A DNA stretch of 64,000 nucleotides, from contig NZ_QUMQ01000001.1 of assembly GCF_003387075.1 (NCBI RefSeq), positions 5,022,001-5,086,000 on the forward strand, given 5' to 3'. Position numbers and translations under genes: made by a program. Each line of letters begins with the position of its first letter. Position 1 is the first letter of the stretch. Positions 10,781 through 26,751 of this stretch are shown here, piece after piece. This DNA comes from Asanoa ferruginea. GTDB lineage: Bacteria > Actinomycetota > Actinomycetes > Mycobacteriales > Micromonosporaceae. The notes below the pieces were generated by a model. It was not told where the DNA came from. It did not search any database and saw only the letters and a program-made list of their open reading frames with translations.

Positions 10781-10805
10781 GCCGAAATGCAATTCGGCTT
10801 TGTGT
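10781..10805 (+). terminator. Weak terminator after rsmB
   Basis: GCCGAAATGCAATTCGGC (10781-10798) is nearly a full palindrome: a 6-bp GCCGAA/TTCGGC stem with a six-base loop that can pair partly. It is followed by TTTGTGTG, three bases after the rsmB stop. It is AT-richer than its surroundings and separates the core operon from the accessory island. Confidence 0.5.
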
Positions 10806-10926: not shown

Positions 10927-13900
10927 GTGGCTGAAGTCGTGCTGGGTCGAGGTCACCTTGACGGCATGCTCGATGCGCTTCTCGGTATTCCCGCACTCGG
11001 TGACTCCGATGTGCGGGACGCGCGCGTAGAGGACCTGCGGAGATCGTTACGCCGTCCATTGGAGATCCAAAGGCACGACGACGCGAAACGCGATCTTCAA
11101 GCGATTCTCGCCAGCTGTCACGCCTGTTCGGGTGGTCTCAAGACCTTCACGCAGATCATTTTGCGGCACCACCGCGGTGACGAGAGCGCCAAGGCCGCGA
11201 CGCTGGCCCGCGACATCAACGGGCCGATGCTGCTGTCGGCGCCCGACCGCGAGGTGCTCCGCCGCCAACTCGCCGCCGTCCCGATCGGTGACATCGCCGA
11301 CGCGGTCGCCGATGTGGCCGCGCTCGCCGAGATCGACGAGATGCGCTCGTTGCAGACCTGGCGCGACACCGGCAAGGCGATCCGCCTGATGGAACGCCTG
11401 CCGATGAGCAGCGACGGTGTGCCCGCACTGATGACCTTCGTCGGCCGGCTGAGTTCCGCCGTCACCGGCGCGGCCAACGGCGAGCTCGGCAGCTGGCTGG
11501 AGACCGTCGCCGGCGGTCTGGGCGTCGGCCCAGCGACATTGAACGAGCTGCGGATGATCGGCGGCCCGCGGGCCACCGCGACCTCGGCCGCTCCGGAGCC
11601 GTCCACGCTCGCGCTCAACGCCGTGCCGCGCCAGCCGCAGCGTTCCCGGCGTGCTGAAGAAACCGGTTTGATCTGGGGCGGCGTGCCTATTCGCAACCGC
11701 AACTTCACCGGTCGCGACGGCATGTTGGAGCGGCTCGGAGAGGCATTGCGCAACACCTCCAAGGCGTCGGTGCTTCCGCAGACGCTGCACGGCATGGGTG
11801 GTGTCGGCAAAACGCAACTGGTGGTCGAATACGTCTACCGGCACATCGACCAATACGACCTGATCTGGTGGATCGCGGCGGAGCAGCCGTCGAGTGTGCT
11901 CCGGTCGTTGACCGCGCTGGCCGAGCGCCTCGGCCTGGCCACCACCGAAGACCGGCAGCAAAACGCGCGCATCGTCCTCGACGCGCTCGCGGGCGGCGGC
12001 CTGACCTGGTTGCTGGTCTACGACAACGCCGACGACCCCGACACCCTCGACCAGTTCCTGCCGTCGTCGGGTGGCGACGTCATCGTCACCAGCCGCATCC
12101 AGGAATGGGCGGCGGTCGGGCCGGCGATCGAGGTCGACGTCTTCCGCCGCGACGAAAGCGTCGAGCTCCTCCGCAAGCGCACCCGGGACAGCGACGGCAA
12201 CGCGCGCATCCAGGAGCCGGACGCGCGAGCGCTGGCGGAGAAGCTCGGCGACCTGCCCCTGGCCCTCGAGCAGGCCGCGGCGTGGTACCTGGCGACCGCG
12301 ATGCCGATCAAGGAATACATCGAGCTGCTCGACACCCACATCGAGCTGCTCGCCGAGGGCAAGCCGATCAACTACCCGGTCTCGGTGGCCGCGTTCGTGA
12401 CGCTCGCCATGGAGCAGTTGCGCCGTGACTCGCCGGCGACGGCGCAGCTCTTCGAGCTGTTCGCCTACCTCGGCGGTGAGCCGGTCGCGGTGTCGCTGCT
12501 CATCAACGGCAAGGACGCCGACGTCACCGAGCCCCTGCGGAGCATGCTCCGGCAGAAGGTCCAACTCAACCGGGCCGTCCGCGACCTCAACCGGTTCGGC
12601 CTCGCCAAGGTCGACGCGGCACAGCGGATCCAGGTGCACCGGCTGGTGCAGCGGGTGCTGCGCGACACCATGCCCCTCGGGCTGGCGGAGGCCGCGCTGC
12701 GCAACGTCCGCAACATCCTCGTCCAGGCCAGCCCCGGCGACCCCGACGAGAACCCCAACATGGAGTTCCACGCCGACCTGGGTCCGCACATCGACGCCGC
12801 CGACCTCACGAATGCCGACAGCCTCGAGGCCCGCACGGTGGTCGGCGACTACTCCCGCTACCTGTTCATCATCGGTGACTACGCCGGCAGCCAGCGCCTC
12901 GCCGAACGGTCGGTCAACACGTGGGAGAAGGAGACCTTCGACCCCAAGCTCGGGCCCGACGGAGAGATGACGCTGCTGGCCCGCGCGCAGTTGGCCAACG
13001 CGCGGCGCGCCACCGGCGACAGTGCCGGAGCCGCCCCGCTGGCGCTGGACACCTACCACCGGCTCCGCAACAGTCCGCTGCTGGGTCCGAGCCACGAATA
13101 CACGCTGATCACCGGCAACCAGGTCGGTGCCGATCTTCGGATCGCCGGCAAATACCTCGAGGCACTGGCGTTCGACCAGGAGTCCGTCGCGGCGCACCGC
13201 GAAGTCTTCCGGGCCGAAGACGACACCTACACGCTGCGCGCCAAGCTCAATCTGGCGGTGGACTATCGCATGATCGGCAACTTCACCGAGGCGTTCCGGC
13301 TCGACAAGGAGGTCGCCGAATACTGGGAAGACGCCGGTGCCACCGACCGGCGGTCGCTCGAAGCGCAGATGAACATGGGCCGCAGCTACTACGGAATGGG
13401 CGCCTACACGTCCGGTGTCAAGATCATGGAAGACTGGCGGGAGTCCCTCCACTACGTGGTCGGGTCCAACCACCGCCTGGCCCTGCTCGCCGACCGCACG
13501 TTCGGGATCCTGCTGCGCAAGGCCGGCCGGCTCGACGATTCCGCCTCGATGCTGGAAGACACCGAAAAGCGCACGCGGGCCCGATTCGGTGCCAACCACG
13601 AATACACGGTGGCGGCCGCCGTCAGCCTCGCCAACGCGCTGCGCGAGTTGGGCCGGCTCGACGAGGCACAGGCGCTGATCTCCGACGCGCTCGGCCGATA
13701 CAAGTCCGACTTCGGCGAGTTCCACCCGCTGACGCTGGTGGCGACCGTCAACGACGCCATCGTCAAGCGCGCCCTGGGTGAGCTCGACGAAGCGCGCGAG
13801 CTCGACGAACGCTCCTACGCCAAGTTGGCCGAAGTCCTCTCGCCCGACCACCCCTACACGCTGTGCGCCGGCAACTCGGTCGCCACCAACCTCGCGCTCG

Positions 13901-14193
13901 CCGGCGAACGCGCGGCCGCACTGGCCCAGTCCACGTTGATCGTGCAGACCAGCCGGGCGACCTCCGGCGGTGGTGATCCGGCGCGCGACGGCTTCGAGCA
14001 CCCCTACGTGCTGATGCGCGCGATCAACCTGGCACACGACCTGCGCGCGGCCGGATCCGAGGCCGAGGGTGACGCCCTGTTCGCCGAATCGTTCGACGCC
14101 CTCCGCCGGTTCCTGGGGCCGGACCACCACGAGGTGGTCGCCGTCGGCGAAGGGCGTCGCACCGAGGGCGACATCGAGTCGCCCCCCACGTGA
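10927..14193 (+). CDS. STAND NTPase (NB-ARC + TPR) with effector-associated-like N-terminus, FxsT-like
   Basis: This 1,088-aa protein has three parts. Residues 1-85 (MLDALLGIPALGDSDVRDAR ... GGLKTFTQII) resemble the helical effector-associated domain 2 of bacterial conflict systems; this is recognition by eye. After a helical linker, NB-ARC begins at RNRNFTGRDGMLERL (about residue 256), with Walker A GMGGVGKT (289-296), Walker B LLVYDNAD (about 362-369), a VTSR sensor and GDLPLALEQAAA. From about residue 640 there are tetratricopeptide repeats of the kind seen in the FxSxx-COOH system TPR protein (FxsT). The C-terminus is RRTEGDIESPPT. It converges with the HExxH gene with no bases between the two stops. 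GTG 10927 has only a weak upstream GTGGG. Likely a cytosolic sensor or switch; the ligand is unknown. Confidence 0.8.
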   Translation: MAEVVLGRGHLDGMLDALLGIPALGDSDVRDARVEDLRRSLRRPLEIQRHDDAKRDLQAILASCHACSGGLKTFTQIILRHHRGDESAKAATLARDINGPMLLSAPDREVLRRQLAAVPIGDIADAVADVAALAEIDEMRSLQTWRDTGKAIRLMERLPMSSDGVPALMTFVGRLSSAVTGAANGELGSWLETVAGGLGVGPATLNELRMIGGPRATATSAAPEPSTLALNAVPRQPQRSRRAEETGLIWGGVPIRNRNFTGRDGMLERLGEALRNTSKASVLPQTLHGMGGVGKTQLVVEYVYRHIDQYDLIWWIAAEQPSSVLRSLTALAERLGLATTEDRQQNARIVLDALAGGGLTWLLVYDNADDPDTLDQFLPSSGGDVIVTSRIQEWAAVGPAIEVDVFRRDESVELLRKRTRDSDGNARIQEPDARALAEKLGDLPLALEQAAAWYLATAMPIKEYIELLDTHIELLAEGKPINYPVSVAAFVTLAMEQLRRDSPATAQLFELFAYLGGEPVAVSLLINGKDADVTEPLRSMLRQKVQLNRAVRDLNRFGLAKVDAAQRIQVHRLVQRVLRDTMPLGLAEAALRNVRNILVQASPGDPDENPNMEFHADLGPHIDAADLTNADSLEARTVVGDYSRYLFIIGDYAGSQRLAERSVNTWEKETFDPKLGPDGEMTLLARAQLANARRATGDSAGAAPLALDTYHRLRNSPLLGPSHEYTLITGNQVGADLRIAGKYLEALAFDQESVAAHREVFRAEDDTYTLRAKLNLAVDYRMIGNFTEAFRLDKEVAEYWEDAGATDRRSLEAQMNMGRSYYGMGAYTSGVKIMEDWRESLHYVVGSNHRLALLADRTFGILLRKAGRLDDSASMLEDTEKRTRARFGANHEYTVAAAVSLANALRELGRLDEAQALISDALGRYKSDFGEFHPLTLVATVNDAIVKRALGELDEARELDERSYAKLAEVLSPDHPYTLCAGNSVATNLALAGERAAALAQSTLIVQTSRATSGGGDPARDGFEHPYVLMRAINLAHDLRAAGSEAEGDALFAESFDALRRFLGPDHHEVVAVGEGRRTEGDIESPPT

Positions 14194-15477
14194 TCAGTTG
14201 AGGTCGGCGCCGTTGCGTTCCGTCCACTGCCGGCGGATCCGGGCGTTGGCCTCCTCGGCCGCGTGCGCGATGGCCGGCGGCACCGGCTCGGCGAGCAGCG
14301 AGTCGGTCCGGAGTCGCAGTTGACCGACCAGCGCCCGGCCGGCCGGTGTCAGACCGGGCGACTGCTCGATCGACGTCAGGCCCGTGTGCACCTGCATGCG
14401 AGCGGTCGCGAACTGCCGTTGCGCCTCGTCGGTCAGGGCGTCGACCTCGCGCAGCGCGCGCCAGGTGTCGGCCACCCCGACGAACGCGTAGACCCCTTGC
14501 AGCAGACCGGCGAGCGGCCGGGGGTCGACGCGCCACGGCGCGAAGTAGCGGGTCTTGTCGGACGCGTCGCTCATCGGCATGAGGTCGAGCATCGCGCTGA
14601 GCTTCGAATGCTGGAACTCGTGCACGAGGGTGACGGCGAACTCCGCCGCGGAAGGCGGCCGGGTCAACCCGAAAACGCCGAACGCGTGCCGAATCGTCGC
14701 GCTGCGCGCCGAGAGGCCGTCTTCGACCAGCGGCACGAGCGTGCGCAGCCCGGCCCGCAACTCGACCTCCCGTTCGGGCAGGTGCCGGCCGAGCAGATCC
14801 CAGGCTTCCGCGAAGAGCGTCTGCCAGGTGGCGACCTCCGCGGACGGCAGCCGGAGGGCCGGCGGCACGTGATGGCCGTGCCGGTAGGGGTCGACATCGT
14901 CCAACTCCAGCGCGAAGTCGGCGGCGGTGAGCCGGCGGACCGGGAGCCAGCGGGCATCCTCGTGCTCCGCCCGGGCCGACACCTCGACACCGTCGCTGTG
15001 CACCTTGAGCCGGCCGTCGCGCACCCGGAGGACGGCGCGGTAGGCGTCGATCAGCGCGACGCCGAGGCCGGGAACGGAGGCGTGGCCGTCGCGAACCGGG
15101 ATGGTCGCCTCGCCGTCGACACCGGTCGCCGCACCGGCGACCATGGCGAGCGCGGCGAGCTGGGCCGCGTCGGTCCACTGCGGACGACCCTGGAGCGCCG
15201 CCCGCACGGCGATCGCCGCCCAACCACCGACCAGCGGCTTGCCGATCACCTCGGCGAACCGGGCGGGGTCGCTGCGGCGTGCCCGGTCGAGAGCTTCGAC
15301 CACGGCGTCGCGCTCGCTCGCCGGCCCGGGCCAGCGTTCGAGCAGGAAGCCGATGAGCTGGAGGTGCTTGTTCACCTGGGCCGCGCGGAGCGCGTCGATC
15401 GCGGCGGCGCCGCCGCCGCCGGCAGCGAGGCCATCGAAGAGCGACTGCTCCAGCTCGATGACAGCGGTGCTGGTCAT
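14194..15477 (-). CDS. HExxH-type peptide-modifying protein (aKG-HExxH peptide beta-hydroxylase family)
   Basis: The 427-aa protein carries the hallmark HEFQH at residues 286-290 (in TLVHEFQHSKLSAMLDLMP), followed by YFAPWRVDPRPLAGLLQGVY, as in the putative peptide-modification HExxH family found with Fxs RiPP clusters. In many such clusters this domain is fused to FxsB, sometimes inactivated; here it is a separate gene with an intact motif. Members have been linked to 2-oxoglutarate-dependent beta-hydroxylation of peptides, so hydroxylation of FxsA is a reasonable inference. ATG 15477 overlaps the fxsB stop (ATGA); upstream in-frame codons belong to fxsB in another frame. The stop abuts the convergent STAND gene directly. 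Confidence 0.82.
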   Translation of the reverse strand: MTSTAVIELEQSLFDGLAAGGGGAAAIDALRAAQVNKHLQLIGFLLERWPGPASERDAVVEALDRARRSDPARFAEVIGKPLVGGWAAIAVRAALQGRPQWTDAAQLAALAMVAGAATGVDGEATIPVRDGHASVPGLGVALIDAYRAVLRVRDGRLKVHSDGVEVSARAEHEDARWLPVRRLTAADFALELDDVDPYRHGHHVPPALRLPSAEVATWQTLFAEAWDLLGRHLPEREVELRAGLRTLVPLVEDGLSARSATIRHAFGVFGLTRPPSAAEFAVTLVHEFQHSKLSAMLDLMPMSDASDKTRYFAPWRVDPRPLAGLLQGVYAFVGVADTWRALREVDALTDEAQRQFATARMQVHTGLTSIEQSPGLTPAGRALVGQLRLRTDSLLAEPVPPAIAHAAEEANARIRRQWTERNGADLN

Positions 15478-16715: not shown

Positions 16716-16909
16716 GAGACGAAGGAGCTGAACGCCGAAATGACCCCGTCGGGGTCGTCGAGGCTGTTCACCAGCCGCCGCATCGAAAGGGCAAGAGCAG
16801 GGTCCGCGCCGCTGGTCGCGAGTTCCGAGATCGGCAGACCGGAAACTTCAGCGAGCGGCGCCCACTGATCCCCGTCGGTGCCCGTGTCTTGCAGCGGCTT
16901 ACTCACCAT
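16712..16909 (-). CDS. fxsA: FxsA-type RiPP precursor peptide
   Basis: A 65-aa peptide directly upstream of fxsB. The leader-like body (WAPLAEVSGLPISELATSGA, then LALSMRRLVNSLDDPDG) resembles FxSxx-COOH precursors. The C-terminus is VISAFSSFVS. The family rule is Phe-x-Ser-x-x-COOH; here FSSFV fits, but one more Ser follows, so the end is FxSFxS and both aromatic residues have Ser two positions later. ATG 16909 has GGGAG at 16914-16918. The last sense codon TCA and the TGA stop supply the fxsB ATG. There is no Cys, so thioether chemistry is excluded. Confidence 0.85.
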   Translation of the reverse strand: MVSKPLQDTGTDGDQWAPLAEVSGLPISELATSGADPALALSMRRLVNSLDDPDGVISAFSSFVS

Positions 16910-17045
16910 TGAAGGCTCCCTATACCGACAAAAGTCATTAAAACGGACAGTTCAGTCACAGACTGAGACTCGAAAAGTATGACGAGTGAGCAGGTGCTGA
17001 CGTAGCTAGACAAGCGGCGGTTTACAGAATTTTACGGCCTACTTG
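16910..17045 (-). promoter_or_regulatory. AT-rich gap between the second STAND gene and fxsA
   Basis: This 136-base gap is far richer in A and T than its surroundings and lies directly upstream of fxsA on the minus strand. It holds a 6-bp TCAGTC/GACTGA hairpin with a three-base loop (plus strand 16952-16966); on the transcript this is followed by runs of U (GTTTTAATGACTTTT). It could be an attenuator or terminator between the NTPase gene and the RiPP genes, or a promoter region for fxsA. A TATAGG at 16919-16924 (minus) is too close to the start for an ordinary leader. Confidence 0.4.
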
Positions 17046-20000
17046 TCATGCGGACGGGGGTTCAATGGTGCACTCGATCCGGCGACCATTGACAACGTGG
17101 CCCGCCATGGCATGGCCCCGGCCGAGTTCCCGGTGCACCGCCGACAAGACCGACTCCCGGAGGTCGGCCGCCTCGTCGACCCGGCCGTCCGCCGCCAGGT
17201 CGAGCGCCAGGTTGGCACCGATGGCCAGCGAATCCGGGTGATCCGCGCCTTGCGACTCACAAGCCCTGGCGTACGCGCTGGCAGACAGCGCGCGTGCGGC
17301 CGGCGCGTGGTGCCCACCGGCCAACGCGTAGTCGGTCGCCAGGTTGGCGGTCGCGGCGATGGTCGACGGGTGGCCGTCACCGAGGCGGTCGCGCAGCGCC
17401 TCGCTGGCCGCGGCGTCGAACTGCTGCGCCTGGAGCCGATAGCCCTGTGCCCGCCGGATGGCCGCGAAGTTGACCTTTGCCGCGAGGGTCAGCGGATGGC
17501 GCGACCCGAACGTGCGGCTGTAGGCCGCGACGGCGTCGTGCGCGTAGGCGTCGGCCTCCTGGAGGTCACCCTGCAACCGAAGAGTGTTCGCATAACTGAA
17601 CGCGGCCGCCAGCGTGTATTCGTGGTCGGGACCGAACGCGGCATGACATTCGCGGTAATGCTCCTTGAGCTGCACGAGCGAGTCGGCCAACTCGCCGAGG
17701 CCACGCTGAGCCAGGCCCAGCGTGCGGCGCAGGAGCAGCGCGCCGCGGTCGACCTGGCCGGGCAGCGAACGGCCGGATCCCGCGTACACCGTTTGCAGTT
17801 CCAATAGCTGTGCCCAACGGCCGAGACCGTAGAGGTCTTCGGCGAGCGCGTTGACCGACAGGTGGGTGCGCCAGTCGTCGGCGCCGAAATGACGCAGATT
17901 CGCGGCGAGTGCCACCCGGTCGGTATTTTCCGCCCGCGCGAACTCGCCCATGTGCCGAAGGCTCACCGCGAAATTGTGGCGCCGGGTGGCGGTGCTCGGA
18001 TCGTCGTCGCCGTATCTGCGTTCCCAGCGTTCGAGAGTGGCCGAGTCGATCTCTTTCGCCCGGCGGTATTCGCCGGCCAGGCGCAGGTCCGACGCATGAC
18101 TCGAGGACAGCCTGAGGGTCAATGGATGGTCTTCGCCGTAGGCCGGGTCGAATCGCAATCGACTCATCGCGTCTGCCATGCGATCGCGGGCCGCCTGATA
18201 ATCGCCCAGCGCGCGCAGCGCGTTAGCCCATTCGTGGGTCGCCTTCAGCACGAGTTCGGCACCGGGACCGAGGCCCGGCGCTTCGCGCCACACCGTGACC
18301 GCTGACTCCGCCACGTCGCGCGCGCCCGCGTAGTCACCGATCACATAGCGGTATCTGATCTGGTGGTAAACGGTGAGCAACACCTTCGGCGAGTCGGACT
18401 GGATCAGCTCCGCCGGCAGGACGTGGGCGGCGATCTCCCGGTGCATGCCGCTGGAGGCCACATCGTTGGGTTCGCCCTGGCCCGCGGCGGCGAGCACCTC
18501 ATGAGCGTTGCGCCGGGCGCGGCCGAGCGCCTCCTCGGACAACACGTCGCGAAGCGCGTGCCGGGTGATCGGCTGCACTTCGACCCGCTGGTCGCCGTGG
18601 AGTCGCGCCAATCCGTATTGCTGGACCGAGCGCAGCGCCCTGAGCAGTTCGAGGGGGTCGCCGACCGCGCGGCGCAGGGCGGCCGTCACGTCGCCGACGC
18701 GACCCTGCCGCAACAGCGCGATCGCGACGGGCTCGGAACCGAACCAGGCGAACATCTCCAGGACCAGCATCGCGGACGGGTTGGCCGAGCCGAACTTGTC
18801 GAGCGCGACCTTGATGACGGGCAGCACGCCGGGGGAGCCCTCGAGCCGCTCTTTCAACTCGATCCACGACAGTCCCGGTCCCTGCCGCAACGCCGCGATG
18901 TGTTCCAGGGCCAGCGGCAACCGGCCGATCTGATCGAGAAGCTCCCGGGCCTGAACCTCGCTGAGCGAGACGTCGCGCTTGCGGAGGAAGGCCACCGCCT
19001 CGTCCACAGTGAAGTCCGGCACCTCGATGCCGCTGCTGGTGTTCTCGCGGCCGAGTGCCGGGTCGCGGGTGGTCACGATCACGTGGCCGCCGAAGGTCGG
19101 CATCAGCTGCCGCACTTCCTCGTCGCTCACCCCGTCGAAGACCAGCAGGTAGGGGGTCGGCTGCGACTCGAGTTGGCTGATCACGCCGTCGATGGTCTGG
19201 TCGGCGCTCTGCCCCTGCCGCGAGCCGAGCCGCTCCGCGAGGTCGAGCAGCGACCGGCGGGCATGCTCCAGCTGGTCGGCCTGTATCCACCAGATCACCA
19301 GGTGCTCGTGGCGGTAGCGCTCGACGTATTCCCGTGCGAGCTGGGTCTTGCCGACCCCGCTGAGCCCGTGGAGCACCACCGGCGCGTGCGGGTTCTCCTG
19401 TAGTTCCCGGTGCATCCGGTCGAGCAGCGCGGCCCGGCCGGTGAACATGCTGTCGCGGTCGGGCAGCCCACCGACGATCCGCTCCACCGACGACAGCGGC
19501 ACGGGCTCGATCTGCGTGCGCAACACCTCGTCGGGCCGGATGGCGACGCGCTCCGGTGGCGACGGCATCCGCACCTGGACGGGCTCGGAGCGGATCTGCG
19601 GTCGCGGCCCGGGGATGGGCGCGCGGGCGATCGACTCGGCGGGGCGGGCGACCGCGGCCGCCCGCGCGTTGATCCACAGTGGCTTGAAGCGGCGTTCGAG
19701 GTCGCGCTCGCTGTCGTCGAGTTCGGCGCGCACCTTCAGCGCGAAGACGATCGAGCGGACCTTTTCCCAGGCGGGCGGTGGGCCGCCGTGCAACAGGGCG
19801 GCCACTGTCTGGTGTGAAACGCTTTCGAAACGCTTGGGCAGCGCCGAGATGTCCTTGCTGATGAGCCGCGCGGCCGGTTGGCCGGCCAGGTCATAGAGCT
19901 CATGCAGGACTGCGACGAACTCGCGCAGCGGACCGTCCGGCAACGCATCCGACGCCGGTAACCGGATCGCCAAGCAGCACACTCCGACGGGTGTATAGCG

Positions 20001-20072
20001 TTGCCAAGTTGCGTTGAACAAGCTTGACATGCGGTGTCGCTCGCGAACAACCGGGTGCCCGCGAGAATTCAT
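17046..20072 (-). CDS. STAND NTPase (HTH-like N-terminus + NB-ARC + TPR)
   Basis: This 1,008-aa protein begins with a region common in actinobacterial HTH-type proteins (about residues 46-125: LREFVAVLHELYDLAGQPAA ... VSHQTVAALLHG). NB-ARC follows: DSMFTGRAALLDRM, Walker A GLSGVGKT (236-243), Walker B YLLVFDGVSD and VTTRD. From about residue 560 are TPRs, and the C-terminus is RRIECTIEPPSA, echoing the end of the first STAND protein. It lies upstream of fxsA on the same strand, 136 bases away, and is divergent from the third STAND gene. ATG 20072 has AAGGA two bases upstream; ATG 20030 (MSSLFNATW) is an alternative. It may sense a cue and control expression or action of the RiPP system; that is inference. 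Confidence 0.8.
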   Translation of the reverse strand: MNSRGHPVVRERHRMSSLFNATWQRYTPVGVCCLAIRLPASDALPDGPLREFVAVLHELYDLAGQPAARLISKDISALPKRFESVSHQTVAALLHGGPPPAWEKVRSIVFALKVRAELDDSERDLERRFKPLWINARAAAVARPAESIARAPIPGPRPQIRSEPVQVRMPSPPERVAIRPDEVLRTQIEPVPLSSVERIVGGLPDRDSMFTGRAALLDRMHRELQENPHAPVVLHGLSGVGKTQLAREYVERYRHEHLVIWWIQADQLEHARRSLLDLAERLGSRQGQSADQTIDGVISQLESQPTPYLLVFDGVSDEEVRQLMPTFGGHVIVTTRDPALGRENTSSGIEVPDFTVDEAVAFLRKRDVSLSEVQARELLDQIGRLPLALEHIAALRQGPGLSWIELKERLEGSPGVLPVIKVALDKFGSANPSAMLVLEMFAWFGSEPVAIALLRQGRVGDVTAALRRAVGDPLELLRALRSVQQYGLARLHGDQRVEVQPITRHALRDVLSEEALGRARRNAHEVLAAAGQGEPNDVASSGMHREIAAHVLPAELIQSDSPKVLLTVYHQIRYRYVIGDYAGARDVAESAVTVWREAPGLGPGAELVLKATHEWANALRALGDYQAARDRMADAMSRLRFDPAYGEDHPLTLRLSSSHASDLRLAGEYRRAKEIDSATLERWERRYGDDDPSTATRRHNFAVSLRHMGEFARAENTDRVALAANLRHFGADDWRTHLSVNALAEDLYGLGRWAQLLELQTVYAGSGRSLPGQVDRGALLLRRTLGLAQRGLGELADSLVQLKEHYRECHAAFGPDHEYTLAAAFSYANTLRLQGDLQEADAYAHDAVAAYSRTFGSRHPLTLAAKVNFAAIRRAQGYRLQAQQFDAAASEALRDRLGDGHPSTIAATANLATDYALAGGHHAPAARALSASAYARACESQGADHPDSLAIGANLALDLAADGRVDEAADLRESVLSAVHRELGRGHAMAGHVVNGRRIECTIEPPSA

Positions 20073-20165: not shown

Positions 20166-23100
20166 ATGACCAACAGTCGGCACGGCACGGTGATCACCTT
20201 CTACTCATTCACCGGCGGCACCGGTCGCACGATGGCCCTGGCCAATGTCGCCTGGATCCTGGCGGCGAATGGGCATCGCGTTCTGGTCGCCGACTGGCAC
20301 TTCGAGTCACCCGGTCTCCATCGCTATTTCCGGCCGTTCATCCGATCCGAGGACATCGACCACGCCCCGGGCGTTACCGATCTGATTCGCGGATATGAGT
20401 TGGAAGTCATGCGCGCGGGTGGCCCGCTGCCACAACCCGACCTCGAACGCCTCGCTGACGTCACATCGCACGCGATCCCGCTCGACTGGGAGTTTCCCGG
20501 CGACGGTTGCCTACATCTGCTTCCGACCGGCAGCCAGGATCGCAACTATGTCGCGATCATCGGTGCGACAGGTTGGGACGAGTTCTACGAGCGGCGCGAC
20601 GGCGGCCGGTTCTTCGACGTCCTGCGTGACACGATGCGCGGCGAATACGACTACGCGCTGATCGACAGCCCCAACGGGTGGAACGAACTGGCCGACATCT
20701 GCGCGATCCAGCTTCCGGACGTGCTGGTCAGTTGCTTCCCGCTCAGCCATCAGGGCATCGAGGGCGCGGTCGCGTCCGCGTCCGCCGTGCGTTTCCACCA
20801 CGCGGAACGGGAGATCCGGGTCCTGCCGGTGCCGACCAGGGTTGACCTCGGCGAGCAGGAGAAGGCCCAGATCGGCCGCCAGGTCGCCCGGCAACGACTG
20901 GCGGGTCTGCCGAAGGGCATGCCGGAGCGCGAGCGCGATGTCTACTGGCGATCGGTCGAAGTGCCGCACTGTCCCTATTACTCGTTCGAGGAGGTGCTGG
21001 CTCCGTTCGGCGACCGGCCCGACATGCCGTCTCCTCTGCTCAGCGCCTACGAGTCGATCGCACGGTTCGCCAGCGACGGGGTCGTCGAGCGGCTGCCGCC
21101 GATGAACGAGTTCGTCCGGGCCCGCACGCTCGGCCTCTTCACCCGCCGGGCCGCCGTGGCCGAGGAGAACGTGGCGCTGTCCTACGCTCCCGCGGATCAG
21201 GCCTGGGCCGAGTGGGTGGAGCGGTTGCTGACGGCGGCCGGGATCCGGGTGCACGACGTCCCCGAGGGCACGGCCGAGGCGACCCCGTTGCACGCCCGCC
21301 TGATGGTGATCGTTTCGGCGACCAGTGCCGAAGGCCAGGCCGCCCTGGTCGCCCGCGACGACCGGGGCGCGTTCGCCGTCTACGTCGACGTCGTTCCGCC
21401 GTTGCCGGCGTTCGAGCTCGACGCCTCCGCGTTCGTCGCCGGGCTCAGCGCCGACGAGGCGATCGAGCGGCTGCTGCGCCTTGTCGGGCACGTGGGCATC
21501 GGTGCCGACCTCGACGCCGCGAAGCTGGGCGTGCGGTTTCCGGGCACCGACCGCGAGGTTGTCGGCCTGCCCGTGCGCAACCCGCGCTTCACCGGCCGCG
21601 AGCACGAGCTCCGCCAACTCCGCGCCCACCTGCGCGCACACAGCGGCGACGGGCTGCCCTGGCCGGTGCCGGTGGTGCTGCGCGGCATGGGCGGTGTCGG
21701 CAAGTCCGAGATCGCGCTGGAGTACGCGCACCGGTTCGCGGCGTCCTACGACGTCGTCTGGTGGCTCGACGACGACGCCAAGCCCCTCGACACCGCGCCA
21801 CTGGGCCCGTCGAGGGTCGGCAGCGCCTACCCCCGGTGGCTCGTGGTCTGCGACCACGCCGAAGACCTCGAACGAGTGGTCCAGCGGTTGCCGGCCGGCG
21901 CCGGGCACCTGCTGCTGACCTCGCGCGACACCCCCTGGCAGGACCTGGTGCACGCGCTGTCGATCGACGTCCTGCCGCGGGCTGCGAGCCTGCGGTTGCT
22001 CCAGACCTACCTGCCGACGATCGAACCCGAGCAGGCGATGTCGCTCGCGGCGGCCGTCGGCGACCTGCCGCTGGCGCTGTGCGCCGCCGGCGACTGGCTC
22101 GCGTCCACCGGCACCGGGGTCGACGACTACGTGCGGCAGGTCCGGCGCGACGGTGTGTCCAGCGTGGAGCACACCTGGTCACAGTCGCTCGCACGGCTGC
22201 GCGACGACCATCCACCGGGATTCCACCTGCTCGCGCATCTCTCGACGCTCGCGCCGGAGATCGGCCTCGACATCGTCTACGCCGACGAGTTCGCGACCGC
22301 GCTCGCCGGGGTCAACCCGGCCACCGCCACCCGGCCCTACCGGGCCTTGCTCGTGCAGCAGATCAGCCGGCTGGCGCTGCTCCGGCTCGACGTCGGGCAC
22401 CGCGCGATCCACGTCCACCCGCTGCTCCAGCACCTGGTGCGCGGCGAGGTCTCCGCCTCCGACCTCGACGAGATCCGCCATCGCATGCACGGTGTGCTGG
22501 CGGCGCTGCGCCCGACGGCCGGCCCGGAAGATCCGGCGTCCTGGCCGCGGCTGGGGCTGCTCTGGCCGCACCTCGAGCATTGCGCCGCGGCCGACTGTGG
22601 CGACGAGACCACCCGCGAGCTGCTGCTCGATCAGGTCCGGCACGCCTGGCTCAGCGGCGAGCTCAGCGACGGCCAGGCGCTGGCGTCCCGGATCGGCGCG
22701 TCCTGGCTCGACGGTGGCGCCGACGGGTTGCGACGGCAGTCGCTCCGGCTGCGCCACATGCTCGCCGGCCTCATCCGGGAGCAGGGCGGGTTCGAGCCGG
22801 CGTACGCGCTCGACCAGGAGGTGCTGGCCCAACAGGGGCAGCTCGTCGGAGCCGACCACCCGGACGTGTTCGAGACGACCGGTGGCGTGGCGGCCGACCT
22901 CCGCGCGCTCGGCCGCTACGCCGCCGCGGTCGCGCTCGACGAGCGGAATGTCGCCGCCAGCACGGCGGCCCTGGGCCCCGACCATCCGGCCACGCTCACC
23001 GCCCGGTCCGGCCTGGCCTGCTCCGAACGGCTCGCGGGCAACGTGCGGGCCGCGGGCGACGGCGACCAGGAGGTCTACGAGCGCCGCCGGGCCATCCTCG

Positions 23101-23900
23101 GCGACCACCACCCCCGAACCCTGAGGTCGGGCGGTGCGCTCGGGCGCGACCTGCGCGAACGCGGGGAATACCGGAGCTCGGTCGCACTGCTGAGGGCCGT
23201 CCGGGCCGCCACGGAGGAGACCTTCGGCCCCGACCGGGTGCCCACCCTGCTCGCCTCGGCCAACCTGGCCGTCTCGCTGCGCTGCGCCGGGCTCGCCGAA
23301 CTCGCCGCGCCGCTCCTGGAGGAGGCCTACGAGCAGCTCAACGAGCGGCTCGGCCCCAACAGCCCCTACACGCTGGCGTGCCGACACAGCCGGGCGACCA
23401 ACCTGGTGGCGCTCGAGCAACTGCCGAGCGCCGCCGCCGAACTCGAGCACGTTCAGCTCCGCTACGAAGGCGAGCTCGGGCCGCGCCATCCTTATGCGCT
23501 CGCCTGTGCCAGCAACCGGGCGGTGGCCAGCCGCATCACCGGCGACCTCGGGTTCGCCCGTTCGCTCAGCGACGAGGCCGCACAGGGGATGCGCGAGGTG
23601 CTCGGACCCGACCATCCACACGCGCTCGCCGTACGCATGAATCTCGCGATCCTCCGTGCCGAGGAGGGCGACCTGCCGGCCGCGCGCGAGCTGGCCCGGG
23701 CCGTGGCCGCCGACACCGCCAGAGTCCTCGGTGCCGACCACCCCGACACGCTGCGCGGCCAGGTCAACCTGGCGCTGATGACCGGCCCCGATGACGCCCT
23801 CGACCGGCTCGAAGCGACCCTCGGCCCCAAGCATCCCTCCGTCCGTGCCGCCCGGGAGCGGCGCTACGTCCACCGCACCCTCGATCCCCACCTGTTCTGA
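20166..23900 (+). CDS. FxsT-type multidomain STAND NTPase: MinD-like + TIR-like + NB-ARC + TPR
   Basis: This 1,244-aa protein has the architecture of the FxSxx-COOH system TPR protein. Residues 8-230 are a MinD/ParA-like ATPase (VITFYSFTGGTGRTMALANV, LVADWHFESPGLHRYF, DYALIDSPNG, FPLSHQGIEGA). Its deviant Walker A, normally KGGTGRT, reads TGGTGRT at residues 16-22, so the signature Lys is lost. About 325-440 is TIR-like (VALSYAPADQAWAEWVERLL). NB-ARC starts at RNPRFTGREHELRQL (about 470), with Walker A GMGGVGKS (507-514) and LVVCDHAED about 45 residues later, a shortened spacing. TPRs fill about 840-1235. It ends RRYVHRTLDPHLF. The hydrolase gene begins two bases after its stop. Confidence 0.85.
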   Translation: MTNSRHGTVITFYSFTGGTGRTMALANVAWILAANGHRVLVADWHFESPGLHRYFRPFIRSEDIDHAPGVTDLIRGYELEVMRAGGPLPQPDLERLADVTSHAIPLDWEFPGDGCLHLLPTGSQDRNYVAIIGATGWDEFYERRDGGRFFDVLRDTMRGEYDYALIDSPNGWNELADICAIQLPDVLVSCFPLSHQGIEGAVASASAVRFHHAEREIRVLPVPTRVDLGEQEKAQIGRQVARQRLAGLPKGMPERERDVYWRSVEVPHCPYYSFEEVLAPFGDRPDMPSPLLSAYESIARFASDGVVERLPPMNEFVRARTLGLFTRRAAVAEENVALSYAPADQAWAEWVERLLTAAGIRVHDVPEGTAEATPLHARLMVIVSATSAEGQAALVARDDRGAFAVYVDVVPPLPAFELDASAFVAGLSADEAIERLLRLVGHVGIGADLDAAKLGVRFPGTDREVVGLPVRNPRFTGREHELRQLRAHLRAHSGDGLPWPVPVVLRGMGGVGKSEIALEYAHRFAASYDVVWWLDDDAKPLDTAPLGPSRVGSAYPRWLVVCDHAEDLERVVQRLPAGAGHLLLTSRDTPWQDLVHALSIDVLPRAASLRLLQTYLPTIEPEQAMSLAAAVGDLPLALCAAGDWLASTGTGVDDYVRQVRRDGVSSVEHTWSQSLARLRDDHPPGFHLLAHLSTLAPEIGLDIVYADEFATALAGVNPATATRPYRALLVQQISRLALLRLDVGHRAIHVHPLLQHLVRGEVSASDLDEIRHRMHGVLAALRPTAGPEDPASWPRLGLLWPHLEHCAAADCGDETTRELLLDQVRHAWLSGELSDGQALASRIGASWLDGGADGLRRQSLRLRHMLAGLIREQGGFEPAYALDQEVLAQQGQLVGADHPDVFETTGGVAADLRALGRYAAAVALDERNVAASTAALGPDHPATLTARSGLACSERLAGNVRAAGDGDQEVYERRRAILGDHHPRTLRSGGALGRDLRERGEYRSSVALLRAVRAATEETFGPDRVPTLLASANLAVSLRCAGLAELAAPLLEEAYEQLNERLGPNSPYTLACRHSRATNLVALEQLPSAAAELEHVQLRYEGELGPRHPYALACASNRAVASRITGDLGFARSLSDEAAQGMREVLGPDHPHALAVRMNLAILRAEEGDLPAARELARAVAADTARVLGADHPDTLRGQVNLALMTGPDDALDRLEATLGPKHPSVRAARERRYVHRTLDPHLF

Positions 23901-23902
23901 CC

Positions 23903-24811
23903 GTGACAGCTCCGGTGCAGGCCTGGGACGGGCGCAGGCTGCAGGTGGACGTGTCCGGCGACGAGCGCGGGCGCCCGGTGTTCCTGCTGCACGGCACGCC
24001 GGGCAGCCGGGTCGGGCCCAAGCCGCGGGCCAGCGTGCTCTACCGGTTGGGTGTCCGGCTCATCTGCTACGACCGGCCCGGCTACGGAGGCTCCGAGCGG
24101 GACCCCGGCCGCACCGTCGCCGACGCCGCCCAGGACATCGAGGCGATCGCCGACCAGCTCGACATCGAACGGTTCGCCGTGGTCGGTCGCTCCGGCGGCG
24201 GGCCGCACGCGCTGGCGGCCGCCGCACTGTTGCCCGAACGGGTCACCGGTGCCGCCGTCCTGGTCGGCCTGGCCCCGGCGAACGCCCACGGCCTCGACTG
24301 GTTCCAGGGCATGACCGACGCCAACGTGAGCGGCTACCGGATGGCCAGCACCGACCGGCAGAAACTGGTCGAGCGGCTGCGGCTGCGCGCCGACCGGGCC
24401 CGGCGCGATCCCCATCAGCTCGTCGACGACCTGCGGAGCCAGATGACCGACCCCGACCTGCGGGTGGTGGGAGACTTCGCGATCCGCCGGCTGCTGGCGC
24501 AGACCTACTCGGAGGCCTTGCGGCCCGGCCCGTACGGGTGGATCGACGACGTGCTGGCGCTGCGTACCCAATGGGGCTTCCGGCCCGAATACATCCGACC
24601 GCCGGTGCTGTTGTGGCACGGCGCAGACGACAACTTCTCCCCGGCGAGCCACACCCGGTGGCTCGCCGCCCGCATTCCGCGCGCCGACGTGCGGGTGCAG
24701 GCGCAGACGGCGCATTTCGGGGCCATGCAGGTGCTCCCGGAGATGCTGGCCTGGTTGGTCGACGCCGCGGCGGGCCGCGCGCGCACCGTCCCGGCGGGAA
24801 GCACGGTGTGA
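23903..24811 (+). CDS. Alpha/beta hydrolase
   Basis: A 302-aa alpha/beta-hydrolase. The oxyanion HGTPGS motif is near residue 32, the nucleophile elbow GRSGGG is at about 95-100, the acid is in HGADDNFSP (about 236) and the His in QTAHFGAM (about 272), so the triad looks complete. There is no signal peptide, so it acts in the cytosol. The substrate (ester, amide or other) is not evident. GTG 23903 follows the FxsT-type gene by two bases and the next gene overlaps its stop (GTGA), so it is part of a three-gene operon. It could be an effector or a peptidase of the RiPP/STAND system; that is inference. Confidence 0.85.
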   Translation: MTAPVQAWDGRRLQVDVSGDERGRPVFLLHGTPGSRVGPKPRASVLYRLGVRLICYDRPGYGGSERDPGRTVADAAQDIEAIADQLDIERFAVVGRSGGGPHALAAAALLPERVTGAAVLVGLAPANAHGLDWFQGMTDANVSGYRMASTDRQKLVERLRLRADRARRDPHQLVDDLRSQMTDPDLRVVGDFAIRRLLAQTYSEALRPGPYGWIDDVLALRTQWGFRPEYIRPPVLLWHGADDNFSPASHTRWLAARIPRADVRVQAQTAHFGAMQVLPEMLAWLVDAAAGRARTVPAGSTV

Positions 24812-26751
24812 AGGGTGAGTCGGTTATACGACCAGCGGAGCGGATTGTGCTTCGCGGACGGGCGGCGACGATGGTCAACGTGGACAGACTGACCCGGCTC
24901 TCGGCCTTCTTCGCGTCCCCGAGAGGGCACCGGGTGCGGCTGGGACTCGCGGTCGTCGCCGCCGTGGCCGCGGTGATCCTGGTGCAACCCCGCTGGTGGG
25001 GCCGGGTCGCGCTGGCGGTCGGCGGGTTCCTCGTCGCGATCTGGCCCGTGGTGCTGCTGCTGTTGGTGGCGGCCCTGCTCGCGGGCCTGTGGTGGCTCGG
25101 TCGCCCGCCGCCGGCGCGGCGCCGGCAACGCCCCGCGGGCGCGCGCCTGCCGCTGTTCGTCCACGTTGGGCTGTTGCTCGTGCTGGCGCTGGTTGTCGCG
25201 GTGCTGGTCGGGTTCCTCTTGTGGCAGGCGTTCGGCCGTCCGGACGTGGGCAACCCGGTGCCCACGCCCCTGCCGACGGGGACCCCGGTGGTGGGGTCGG
25301 GGCGGTGGACGACCCAGAACACCCTCGACGCCCTGAAGATCGTGCTGTCGATCGTCGGCGGCCTGGGTGCGGTCGTCGCGCTGACCGTTGCCTACCGCCG
25401 CCAGCAGCACGGCGAGGCGGCCGAATACCGCGAGGACACGCGGCTCTTCACGGAACGGTTCGCGAAGGCCGCCGAACTGCTCGGCGACACCCAGGCCGCA
25501 GTGCGCCTGGCCGGTGTCTACGCGATGGCGGCCCTCGCCGACGACTGGGCCGACGGCCGGCAGTCGTGCATCGACGTGCTGTGCGCCTACCTGCGCATGC
25601 CGCACACCGCACCGGCGCCGCCGGGGGAGCCCGACGCCCACCCCGGCCCGGCACCGAGCCGCGACCCGCGGGACGAACGCGAGGTCCGGCACACCGTGCT
25701 GCGGCTGGTCCGCGACCACCTGCGCCTGCCGGTCGACCGGGACGCCAGCTGGCACGGACACTCCTTCGACTTCACCGGCGCGCTCTTCGACGGTGGTGAC
25801 CTCAGTGGCATCACCCTCGACGGCACGACCCAGCTCAACTTCGCGGGAGCGACGTTCGCCGACGGTCGGATGTCGTTCGTGGCGGCGGACTTCGCCGGCG
25901 GTGCCGTGTTCTTCGAGGGTGCGCGGTTCGCCGGCGGCCGGGTGTCCTTCGGCGCCGCGCGGTTCGCCGGCAGCGACGTGGATTTCACCACAGCCCGATT
26001 CTCCGGCGGTGACGTCGCGTTCGAGCACGCGGAGTTCGTCGGTGGCGCCCTGTCCTTCGAACGCGCGGAGGTCTCCGCCGGCGCCATCTCCTTCGAAGAG
26101 GCGGAATTCTCCGGCGGCGATATCTCCTTTCAGCAGGTCGAATACTCCGGCGGGAAGGTGTCGTTCGCCCGGGCGGCGTTCTCCGGACCGACCGTCGACC
26201 TTTCGCGGGCCCGGTTCTCCGGCTGTGCGGTGTCGTTCGAGGAGGCGCGGCTCTTCGAAGGCGAGATCTCGCTCGAGCAGGCCGAGTTCTCCGACGGGGA
26301 GGTTTCCTTCGTGGGCGCCATGTTGGTCGGGGGCGCCGTGTCCTTTCGCCGGGCGACGTTCGCCGGCGGCGAGGTCTACTTCGAAGGTGCCCGCTTCACG
26401 GCCAGTGCCGCGTCCTTCCAGCAGGCCGCCTTCTCCGGCGGCGAGGTCTCGTTCCGGGAGGCGGCCTTCGAGGGCGGTGCGGTCTCGTTCCTCGACGCGG
26501 TCTTCGCGAGCGGCAAGGTGTCCTTCGCGGGTGCGGAGTTCTCGGCCGGCGAGGTCTCGTTCGCCGGTGCCGAGTTCGCCGGTGGCGAGGTGTCGTTCCT
26601 CGATGCCGAGTTCTCCGGCGGTGCCGTCGTCCTCGAGGGGTCGGTGGTCACCGATGACGTCGCCGACAGCGGGCCGCTGTTCGACCCCAACCTGGCCGAC
26701 AGCCCGCCGCCCGGCCTGCGGCTGCCCGCTGCGGCCCGAGCGGCTAGTTGA
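24808..26751 (+). CDS. Membrane protein with pentapeptide-type 12-residue repeats
   Basis: A 647-aa protein of the actinobacterial pentapeptide-repeat membrane type. The N-terminus has about four hydrophobic segments (roughly residues 45-62, 66-95, 115-142 and 175-195). A conserved helical segment follows (YREDTRLFTERFAKAAELLG ... VRLAGVYAMAALADDW ... CIDVLCAYLR), then 22 repeats of the form FxGGxVSFxxAx (about residues 350-613), predicted to form a beta-helix. GTG 24808 overlaps the hydrolase stop; ATG 24871 is an alternative start. The stop overlaps the convergent lipoprotein gene by eight bases. Function is unknown; translational coupling places it in the STAND operon. Confidence 0.8.
   Translation: MKGESVIRPAERIVLRGRAATMVNVDRLTRLSAFFASPRGHRVRLGLAVVAAVAAVILVQPRWWGRVALAVGGFLVAIWPVVLLLLVAALLAGLWWLGRPPPARRRQRPAGARLPLFVHVGLLLVLALVVAVLVGFLLWQAFGRPDVGNPVPTPLPTGTPVVGSGRWTTQNTLDALKIVLSIVGGLGAVVALTVAYRRQQHGEAAEYREDTRLFTERFAKAAELLGDTQAAVRLAGVYAMAALADDWADGRQSCIDVLCAYLRMPHTAPAPPGEPDAHPGPAPSRDPRDEREVRHTVLRLVRDHLRLPVDRDASWHGHSFDFTGALFDGGDLSGITLDGTTQLNFAGATFADGRMSFVAADFAGGAVFFEGARFAGGRVSFGAARFAGSDVDFTTARFSGGDVAFEHAEFVGGALSFERAEVSAGAISFEEAEFSGGDISFQQVEYSGGKVSFARAAFSGPTVDLSRARFSGCAVSFEEARLFEGEISLEQAEFSDGEVSFVGAMLVGGAVSFRRATFAGGEVYFEGARFTASAASFQQAAFSGGEVSFREAAFEGGAVSFLDAVFASGKVSFAGAEFSAGEVSFAGAEFAGGEVSFLDAEFSGGAVVLEGSVVTDDVADSGPLFDPNLADSPPPGLRLPAAARAAS
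25855..26646 (+). repeat. 22 tandem 36-bp units coding for the 12-residue repeat
   Basis: 792 bases divide into 22 units of 36 bases, each coding F-x-G-G-x-V-S-F-x-x-A-x or a close variant (for example FAGGRVSFGAAR, FSGGEVSFREAA, FAGGEVSFLDAE). The protein pattern is stricter than the DNA pattern: codons differ between units, so the array is under protein-level selection and was not freshly amplified. Confidence 0.85.

What the first reader, a model, noticed from the sequence alone, without database searches (positions are those of the whole stretch)
10927..26751. Fxs-type RiPP system surrounded by three different STAND NTPases
Seen: precursor, radical SAM/SPASM enzyme and HExxH protein in a coupled minus-strand operon, with NB-ARC/TPR proteins of 1,088, 1,008 and 1,244 aa around them and an alpha/beta hydrolase plus a repeat membrane protein attached to the third. 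Known: FxsB-type enzymes form three-residue cyclophanes, and NB-ARC/TPR proteins with MinD, TIR or effector-associated domains occur in bacterial conflict systems. Inferred: the peptide is a signal or ligand read by the NTPases. Having three receptors with three N-terminal types at one locus suggests several outputs.
Basis: partly seen in the sequence, partly recalled or inferred. Interest (0 to 1): 0.85.

Follow-up and report, generated by a model that had tools for sequence, protein, structure and literature searches.

The report
Modified-peptide locus with three receptor-like NTPases
A soil actinomycete carries, as one inserted block, genes that make a small modified peptide together with three immune-receptor-like switch proteins; the gene kit is a known but untested type, and the unusual part is that two receptor modules that relatives keep apart sit here around one peptide operon.

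Summary
In detail: a coupled FxsA/FxsB/HExxH operon, and three NB-ARC/TPR proteins that all pass the NCBIfam cut-off for the "FxSxx-COOH system TPR protein". The kind is published (Kaur et al. 2020), with a predicted peptide toxin or signal. New here: (1) the eight genes are one 15.97-kb block between rsmB and a septum-formation gene; the site is empty in 3 of 5 congeners. (2) It is composite: the first two NTPases co-vary with each other and with FxsB over nine loci, while the third belongs to a clade whose 8 distinct loci all carry the alpha/beta hydrolase. (3) Near-identical peptide cores (FQSFAS-ER/-GR) go with the first module in one genome and the second in another. (4) An MFS gene lies near FxsB in 1 of 72 loci with the NTPase against 9 of 17 without, so the peptide probably acts inside the cell. 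Against a fixed three-receptor system: of 43 FxsB loci only the window shows three NTPases. Usual partners (EAD2 effector, FxsC) were not found in this genome.

The parts
10771..10781 (+). left copy of 11-bp direct repeat CTAGTTGACCG at the end of rsmB (left edge of the inserted block)
   Evidence: single copy in the empty sites of G088 and G052 (G072 differs at one base); no match in 100 shuffles. At least 8 bp must be doubled if both flanking genes are to stay intact
10927..14193 (+). FxsT-1 (P0001): EAD2 + VMAP-M0 + NB-ARC + TPR, 1,088 aa
   Evidence: NF040586 829 bits; EAD2 38.0 and VMAP-M0 35.1 bits; nearest row in the tree is 69% identical and lies at the same site in congener G101
14194..15477 (-). 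HExxH protein (predicted alpha-ketoglutarate-dependent peptide beta-hydroxylase), 427 aa from the coupled ATG
   Evidence: TIGR04267 159 bits; HEFQH motif; PDB 22nu 206.9 bits, ChlH 8s5f 38.9 bits
15474..16715 (-). FxsB radical SAM/SPASM maturase of the cyclophane-forming family, 413 aa
   Evidence: TIGR04269 443 bits; CNLACTYC motif; PDB 9gm3 ChlB radical SAM domain 229 bits
16712..16909 (-). FxsA precursor, 65 aa, C-terminal FSSFVS (tandem FxSFxS); core codons 16715-16732
   Evidence: TIGR04268 20.0 bits, below the cut-off of 28
17046..20072 (-). FxsT-2 (P0004): helical HTH-like N-terminus + NB-ARC + TPR, 1,008 aa
   Evidence: NF040586 652 bits; N-terminal model pLDDT 83; XRE-type HTH proteins among the top of a non-significant Foldseek list, best E 0.82
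20166..23900 (+). FxsT-3 (P0005): degenerate MinD-like (SFTGGTGRT) + degenerate TIR-like + STAND + TPR, 1,244 aa
   Evidence: NF040586 686 bits, NF047398 97.8 bits, TIR_2 29.0 bits, P-loop comparison, alignment A2
23903..24811 (+). alpha/beta hydrolase with conserved Ser-Asp-His, 2 nt after FxsT-3
   Evidence: PF00561 82.8 bits; alignment A3 with S97, D243 and H271 invariant in 8 rows
24871..26751 (+). pentapeptide-repeat membrane protein, 626 aa from the likely ATG
   Evidence: PF13576 81.3 bits; sequence
26744..26754 (+). right copy of the direct repeat CTAGTTGACCG at the end of the septum-formation gene
8892..10778 (+). left flanking gene rsmB (not part of the system; true start probably further in)
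   Evidence: NCBIfam RsmB models, best 253.7 bits, below their cut-offs; PF01189, PF01029
26744..27628 (-). right flanking gene, septum-formation family lipoprotein (not part of the system)
   Evidence: PF13845 170.8 bits

Best explanation
A mobile, composite member of the standalone FxSxx-type peptide-processing/STAND conflict systems. Shown by sequence: FxsA, FxsB and the HExxH protein are one coupled operon; three FxsT STAND proteins (NB-ARC plus kinesin-light-chain-like TPRs) flank it; the block sits where three congeners have nothing. Inferred: FxsB cross-links one or both F-x-S units of the C-terminal FSSFVS and the HExxH enzyme hydroxylates it; the modified peptide stays in the cell and is bound by the FxsT TPR grooves, setting the NTPase switch, so that a disturbance (infection or stress) that changes peptide level or modification lets the STAND protein oligomerise. 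Outputs inferred: FxsT-1 by EAD2/VMAP-M0 adaptor contacts, FxsT-2 by an HTH-like domain (perhaps DNA contact), FxsT-3 by the alpha/beta hydrolase found with its whole clade. FxsT-1 and FxsT-2 are an old pair with this operon; FxsT-3 plus hydrolase is a second receptor module that joined it.
For: Family membership of the core parts (precursor below cut-off). Linkage 36 of 43 FxsB genes, about 0.5 expected. Empty sites in 3 of 5 congeners and a terminal repeat. Distances among the FxsT-2-type, the partner-FxsT and the FxsB rows agree over nine loci (Mantel r 0.90, 0.91, 0.80). The hydrolase is in the 9 loci of the FxsT-3 clade (8 distinct, L033 and L174 being one genome) and was not found in the other 99 of 108 loci. 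Same peptide core (SAFQSFASER in L036, SAFQSFASGR in L033) with different receptor modules. MFS cluster within 5 kb of FxsB in 1 of 72 FxsT loci against 9 of 17 FxsT-less loci, and no exporter family among the hits of the eight genes. TPRs resemble kinesin light chain. In another locus, L196, an FxsT with EAD2 + VMAP-M0 lies near a nucleoside-phosphorylase protein with EAD2, as the adaptor model predicts.
Against: No experiment. Nothing shows that FxsT binds FxsA. EAD2 has one match in this genome, FxsT-1 itself. FxsC, the TIR partner in the 7 other distinct loci of the FxsT-3 clade, was not found in this genome, with hits in G052 and G018 in the same call. 40 of 110 FxsT have neither FxsB nor HExxH within 12 kb, though 28 of these are among the 38 lowest-scoring. 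The HTH-like fold has no significant structural match. Two more FxsT loci (L051, L075) have the MFS gene just beyond 5 kb, making 3 of 72 against 9 of 17 without the distance limit. Kaur et al. 2020 propose a toxin or amplifying signal instead of a resident ligand, and read the HExxH protein as a peptidase. Related genomes recur in the rows (6 of the 9 MFS loci without FxsT are Nocardia, two from one strain), so the Mantel and Fisher values overstate independence.
Confidence: 0.45

Rival explanations
1. The peptide is a secreted toxin or an alarm signal to kin cells, and the NTPases are its immunity or receiving parts or separate amplifiers (the published prediction of Kaur et al. 2020 is of this kind).
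For: [quoted passage not shown] HExxH enzymes can cleave a C-terminal tetrapeptide oxidatively (PMC12636437, passages seen), which could release a short product.
Against: No exporter family among the hits of the eight inserted genes. An MFS gene sits near FxsB mainly where FxsT is absent (9 of 17 against 1 of 72, or 3 of 72 without the distance limit), which suggests that export and FxsT are alternative fates.
Confidence: 0.25
2. Only FxsT-1 and FxsT-2 belong with this FxsABH operon; FxsT-3, the hydrolase and the pentapeptide protein are a decayed second system that came to rest at the same insertion site.
For: FxsT-3 lies on the opposite strand in its own operon; its clade elsewhere has its own enzymes; its MinD and TIR-like domains are degenerate and FxsC was not found.
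Against: In L033, L035 and L038 FxsT-3-type receptors stand beside an FxsB that groups with the window's (support 94) and, in L033, an almost identical peptide core, so cross-talk is plausible. The FxsT-3 NB-ARC P-loop (GMGGVGKS), the TPRs and the hydrolase triad look intact.
Confidence: 0.25
3. The STAND proteins are transcriptional or developmental regulators of sporulation or morphology in a filamentous actinomycete, and the peptide is a cell-state cofactor, with no role in conflict.
For: FxsT-2 has an HTH-like N-terminus, the right-hand neighbour gene is of a septum-formation family, and the genome has 84 matches to the FxSxx_TPR model, most below cut-off, so NB-ARC/TPR proteins are common in it.
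Against: The block is a patchy insertion absent in three congeners, the flanking gene is present without it, and relatives sit near conflict-system effectors: PNP-EAD2, trypsin-VMAP, CATRA-PNP, PNP-bDLD3.
Confidence: 0.1

Closest known systems
Standalone peptide-processing systems with AP-ATPase/TPR proteins (Kaur, Burroughs, Iyer, Aravind 2020, eLife e52696)
   Same: Small FxSxx-type precursor, HExxH (then called metallopeptidase) gene, radical SAM-SPASM gene, and a TPR STAND protein with an inactive MinD/ParA-like domain (passages seen)
   Different: Three STAND proteins of three N-terminal types at one locus; alpha/beta hydrolase tied to the MinD-type one; no MoxR, vWA or VMAP gene among the eight
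NCBIfam FxSxx-COOH system (TIGR04268, TIGR04269, TIGR04267, NF040586, NF040588/TIGR04276)
   Same: FxsB, HExxH and all three TPR proteins exceed curated cut-offs
   Different: Precursor below its cut-off (20 against 28 bits) with a tandem FxSFxS end; FxsC not found in the genome
ChlB/ChlH fused radical SAM-HExxH cyclophane and beta-hydroxylation enzymes
   Same: Best PDB matches by sequence: 9gm3 (ChlB radical SAM domain) 229 bits for FxsB; for the HExxH protein 22nu (titled 'Radical SAM core domain-containing protein') 206.9 bits and 8s5f (ChlH) 38.9 bits; chemistry as cited in PMC12636437 (passages seen)
   Different: Two separate proteins here; substrate core FSSFVS; I saw no description of STAND proteins with ChlB/ChlH in what I read
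Kinesin light chain TPR domains (works like, not member)
   Same: The TPRs of FxsT-1 match engineered TPR proteins and KLC1/KLC2 structures; KLC grooves bind short peptide motifs (recalled)
   Different: Weak similarity (best KLC E 6e-6), no evidence of common function
RRNPP quorum receptors (works like, recalled)
   Same: A TPR protein read by a short peptide
   Different: No STAND NTPase, and the pheromone is exported and re-imported (recalled)

Membership tests
FxSxx-COOH system (NCBIfam) | FxsB radical SAM/SPASM maturase above cut-off | tested here: met
   TIGR04269 443 bits, cut-off 370
FxSxx-COOH system (NCBIfam) | FxSxx-COOH precursor above the cut-off of TIGR04268 | tested here: inconclusive
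   20.0 bits against 28, so the cut-off itself is not met; second of 48 lax matches in the genome; directly coupled to fxsB; F-x-S present but as FSSFVS
FxSxx-COOH system (NCBIfam) | FxSxx system TPR protein (NF040586) | tested here: met
   829, 652 and 686 bits, cut-off 300
FxSxx-COOH system (NCBIfam) | aKG-HExxH protein (TIGR04267) | tested here: met
   159 bits, cut-off 40
FxSxx-COOH system (NCBIfam) | FxsC TIR-like protein (found in 19 of the 102 loci clustered, so not treated as defining) | tested here: not met
   no hit in the genome; hits in G052 (2 over the cut-off, 2 just under) and G018 (under) in the same call; frequency
Standalone peptide-processing/AP-ATPase system (Kaur 2020) | HExxH gene + small precursor + radical SAM (FxSxx type) + TPR AP-ATPase, one with inactive MinD/ParA-like domain | tested here: met
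   (P-loop SFTGGTGRT lacks both lysines of KGGxGKT, motif recalled)
VMAP ternary system (Kaur 2020) | MoxR ATPase, vWA protein and VMAP protein at the locus | tested here: not met
   none among the family hits of the eight inserted genes; no VMAP-C hit in the genome (which had no positive control)
Cyclophane-containing RiPP (triceptide) | aromatic residue cross-linked to the residue two places on | not testable with these tools
   only the motif F-x-S (twice) is seen
alpha-ketoglutarate HExxH hydroxylase | hydroxylation of the precursor | not testable with these tools
   motif HEFQH present
Known anti-phage defence system (PADLOC) | match to a defence-system model that describes the system | tested here: not met
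   seven proteins scanned (FxsA not): only viperin hits for FxsB and PDC-M28B hits for FxsT-3 around its KGGVGR domain; that PDC models stand for untested candidates is recalled
TIR NADase | catalytic Glu in the TIR domain of FxsT-3 | tested here: not met
   alignment A2 has no invariant Glu among its 12 invariant columns in 7 sequences (that TIR NADases need one is recalled); the model is a Rossmann-like fold with TIR proteins among weak matches

The most novel reading that the evidence does not exclude
One cyclophane peptide, kept inside the cell, is the shared ligand or safety catch of three different NLR-like STAND switches with three outputs, and the receptor modules are interchangeable around one peptide operon: a bacterial receptor network with a single genetically encoded modified ligand.
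Probability: 0.25. Interest if true: 0.85.

Novelty: new variant of a known kind. Interest (0 to 1): 0.5.

Why it matters
What the FxSxx peptides do is, in the papers I could find, only predicted. This locus, with its relatives L036 and L033, gives a natural experiment: nearly the same peptide core with the two-receptor module (L036), with the MinD-type module (L033), or, with a like core, both (window). That makes the question 'is the modified peptide the ligand of the STAND proteins?' directly testable by swapping genes. If so, it would be a case in which a RiPP works as an internal ligand of NLR-like proteins and not as an exported natural product.

Tried and rejected
Rejected: (a) a constant three-NTPase system (one of 43 FxsB genes; no other of 108 loci has three intact ones, L046 showing three hits because one gene is in pieces). 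(b) One precursor per receptor as a rule: loci with two FxsT have two precursors in 9 cases, one in 8 and none found in 2; a relaxed search of the insert found no second precursor. (c) FxsT-3 as a TIR NADase. (d) EAD2 recruitment of a partner from elsewhere in this genome. (e) A novel class of precursor in HExxH-only loci: the NLGxGPPGRxD ends that I found fit the 'RxD type' of Kaur et al. 2020. (f) A transposon or integrase as carrier: none among the family hits of the eight genes; the 11-bp repeat may be a target duplication or just the 8 bp by which the two flanking genes overlap plus three chance bases.

Led nowhere: Foldseek on the FxsT-2 N-terminus (no significant hit) and on the TIR-like region (two E-values under 0.001, both to one Listeria protein, then many Rossmann-like folds). 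Promoter/terminator scan of 16500-20400: one promoter-like site, no terminator. Paper searches for FxsB, FxsT and FxSxx found no dedicated study. The wider searches listed further papers on cyclophane RiPPs and conflict systems that I did not open; I looked into three: PMC7159879 and PMC12636437 (passages seen) and PMC8195603 (six terms, no hit).

Rows dropped or limits: the FxsT count of 110 takes single stretches over the cut-off; matches that pass only when pieces are added were left out, and one search scored at most 13 candidates a genome (G042 reached that), so FxsT numbers are lower bounds. One search adds three sub-cut-off FxsB rows that one search does not. L174 (same genome as L033) and L164-L168 were left out of the neighbour clustering, and L174. 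Two of 107 FxsT cores were too short for the tree. The FxsB tree used 38 rows from chosen loci, not all. In the Mantel test the partner of FxsT-2 in each locus was taken by position; the tree leaves the base of that 25-row group unresolved, so the partners are not shown to be one clade. 8 of the 13 PNP/VMAP cluster members were scanned. Of the 22 HExxH-only sites I inspected 13 (12 fetched, the own-genome one). Loci reach 10 kb at most, and the best 80 of 128 were kept. One search used hand-tallied counts (42 FxsB in place of 43); one search recounted (43, 110) and gave the same 0.53. The FxsA profile was seeded with the window's own precursor, so its score there is circular.

Full report
What is there. 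The finding's coordinates (10927-26751) are almost exactly one block of eight genes. On the minus strand FxsA (16712-16909), FxsB (15474-16715) and the HExxH protein (14194-15477) are linked by two ATGA stop/start overlaps. FxsT-2 (17046-20072, -) ends 136 nt upstream of FxsA on the same strand. FxsT-1 (10927-14193, +) converges on the operon. FxsT-3 (20166-23900, +) points away and is followed after 2 nt by an alpha/beta hydrolase and then by a pentapeptide-repeat membrane protein. NCBIfam places FxsB at 443 bits (cut-off 370), the HExxH protein at 159 (40) and the three NTPases at 829, 652 and 686 (300) in the families of the 'FxSxx-COOH system'; the precursor reaches only 20.0 of 28. So all three NTPases are members of one named family, not unrelated neighbours.

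N-termini. FxsT-1 has EAD2 and VMAP-M0. FxsT-2 has no Pfam family there; ten aligned sequences share 18 invariant positions; the model is helical (pLDDT 83), and XRE-type helix-turn-helix proteins are among the top of a list without significant E-values, so 'HTH-like' is a lead only. FxsT-3 has a KGGVGR-type MinD-like domain whose P-loop reads SFTGGTGRT, where its clade mates read SYKGGTGRT, so that both lysines of the usual motif (recalled) are gone, and a TIR-like region without an invariant Glu in the alignment.

An inserted block. The organism is probably an Asanoa: same-genus genome G052 has a contig of exactly the length of the A. ishikariensis contig of L033 (3,023,953 bases). Of five same-genus genomes, three (G088, G052, G072) have rsmB and the septum-formation gene directly abutting; G101 holds a single FxsT-1 relative (69% identical, no match to the EAD2/VMAP-M0 part) at this spot; G018 holds about 16 kb of other genes, metabolic by eye. 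The site is therefore a hotspot with mixed cargo. Both ends of the block read CTAGTTGACCG (10771-10781, 26744-26754), with no match in 100 shuffles. Because the two flanking genes overlap by 8 bp in the empty sites, some of this duplication is needed for both to survive.

Linkage. In 61 genomes of the family, 36 of 43 FxsB genes over the cut-off have an FxsT within 12 kb: 24 with one, 11 with two, one (the window) with three, 7 with none; about 0.5 are expected by random placement. By genome, 29 have both, 1 FxsB only, 8 FxsT only and 23 neither. Conversely, of 110 FxsT, 39 are near FxsB and HExxH, 10 near FxsB only, 21 near HExxH only, 40 near neither; 28 of these 40 are among the 38 lowest-scoring. 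Of 61 HExxH matches 51 are near an FxsT, 22 of them without FxsB. FxsT numbers are lower bounds (at most 13 candidates scored a genome, pieces left out). The 13 inspected loci of the HExxH-only kind (12 fetched plus L143 of the own genome) each have a gene with the same leader; in 7 of the 13 the C-terminus ends in R-x-D or a like form, which fits the RxD type of Kaur et al.. Thus FxsT often goes with a modified-peptide operon in general, and FxsB is one option.

Two modules. In the FxsT tree (105 rows) FxsT-1 groups with L166, L173, L036 and L031; FxsT-2 with L036 and L031; FxsT-3 with L033/L174, L035, L038 and L169, then L084, L094 and L110. L031 and L036 have the window's order FxsT-2, FxsA, FxsB, HExxH, FxsT-1 without FxsT-3. 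L033, L035 and L038 have FxsT-3, FxsA, FxsB, HExxH and the hydrolase without FxsT-1 or FxsT-2. Over nine loci that carry FxsT-2 and a second, non-HTH FxsT, distances in the two receptor sets correlate at r 0.90, and with FxsB at 0.91 and 0.80 (20,000 permutations, p 5e-5 to 1.1e-3); shared descent of the genomes contributes to this, and the base of the partner group is unresolved. The hydrolase occurs in the 9 loci of the FxsT-3 clade (8 distinct) and was not found in the other 99 of 108 loci, with Ser, Asp and His invariant in 8 aligned rows. The FxsC TIR cluster is in the 7 other distinct loci of that clade (one cluster member, L056, passes the FxsC cut-offs) but FxsC was not found in this genome. 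The window FxsB groups with L036, L031 and L033/L035/L038 (support 94, not starred). So the window joins two modules that its relatives keep apart.

The peptide. The window, L031, L033 and L036 share a tandem FxSFxS end: FSSFVS, FGSFVSDS, FQSFASGR, FQSFASER. L036 and L033 have nearly the same core with different receptors, which is the strongest hint that one peptide type can serve both. ChlB is called a 'multiple cyclophane synthase' in a title that I saw only in a reference list, so two rings per peptide are conceivable. The best PDB matches are the ChlB radical SAM domain for FxsB, and 22nu (titled 'Radical SAM core domain-containing protein') and ChlH for the HExxH protein. The once-assumed peptidase is an alpha-ketoglutarate-dependent hydroxylase in ChlH, where it needs a preinstalled cyclophane, and related enzymes can also cut backbones (PMC12636437, passages seen); the HExxH-only loci above show that FxsB is not always at hand.

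Inside or outside? Of 89 FxsB loci, the MFS cluster lies within 5 kb of FxsB in 1 of 72 with FxsT and in 9 of 17 without (Fisher p 3.5e-7; 1 of 63 against 5 of 11 in loci with full flanks). Without the distance limit it is 3 of 72 against 9 of 17 (p 6e-6). Of the nine, six are Nocardia and two of these one strain, so these are not independent events, and only one cluster member was checked against families (MFS-type, below cut-off). An ABC-ATPase cluster shows a weaker tilt the same way (3 of 72 against 4 of 17, p 0.023). Together with the lack of an exporter family among the hits of the eight genes this favours a peptide that acts in the cell where FxsT is present.

Mechanism. FxsT proteins have an intact NB-ARC P-loop (GMGGVGKT, GLSGVGKT, GMGGVGKS), and the TPRs of FxsT-1 resemble kinesin light chain, whose grooves bind short peptides (recalled). 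The simplest reading is that the modified FxsA tail sits in the TPR groove and sets the switch; whether it holds it off or turns it on is open. For outputs, relatives show conflict-system proteins near FxsT: in L196 an EAD2 + VMAP-M0 FxsT near a nucleoside phosphorylase-EAD2 protein, and PNP-bDLD3, CATRA-PNP, trypsin-VMAP, PNP-VMAP and EAD2-VMAP elsewhere. In the window's genome EAD2 has one match, FxsT-1, and VMAP-C none (no positive control), so FxsT-1's output is unexplained; the hydrolase is the best candidate output for FxsT-3.

Status. Kaur et al. 2020 already described this kind, including standalone systems with an inactive MinD domain, and predicted a toxin or signal. The window is a new variant: composite, with three receptors and one detected precursor. 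I found no experimental study of FxSxx function in the listings and passages seen; the library lacks most subscription journals.

Noticed in passing
own genome G000:C1:1907070-1912198 (L143:7011-12322): A second FxsT (1,235 aa) with a precursor-like gene (ends FYGFQNMMVAGRMEDPESP) and a divergent HExxH gene, but no FxsB over the cut-off; a P-loop protein beside it recurs in five other loci (among them L195 and L199), and a vWA-like protein lies further on (by eye).
   Followed up: partly
G018:C5 (L167), between rsmB and the septum-formation gene: The same chromosomal spot carries about 16 kb of genes that look metabolic by eye (ABC transporter, amidohydrolases, E1-type dehydrogenase) in a congener; a like set (by eye) stands beside an FxsB locus in L173.
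   Followed up: partly
L050, L052, L057, L068, L074, L081, L087, L172, L175: FxsB loci without detected FxsT that carry an MFS-type transporter, six of the nine from Nocardia: possibly the exporting, natural-product branch of the family.
   Followed up: partly
L032, L034, L037, L040, L170: Relatives of the window's two-receptor module whose precursors have YAAH- or YAAF-type cores in place of F-x-S, two precursors in each locus.
   Followed up: no
L044, L049, L051, L053, L055, L063, L071, L073, L075, L085, L091: Loci with FxsT proteins of very short N-terminus are accompanied by a second large P-loop protein family (cluster of 12 ORFs in 11 loci) that looks by eye like another STAND NTPase.
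   Followed up: no
L103:4864-5865 and seven other loci: A gene family whose member in L103 (333 aa) has no NCBIfam match recurs in 8 loci, most with MinD-type FxsT of one clade.
   Followed up: no
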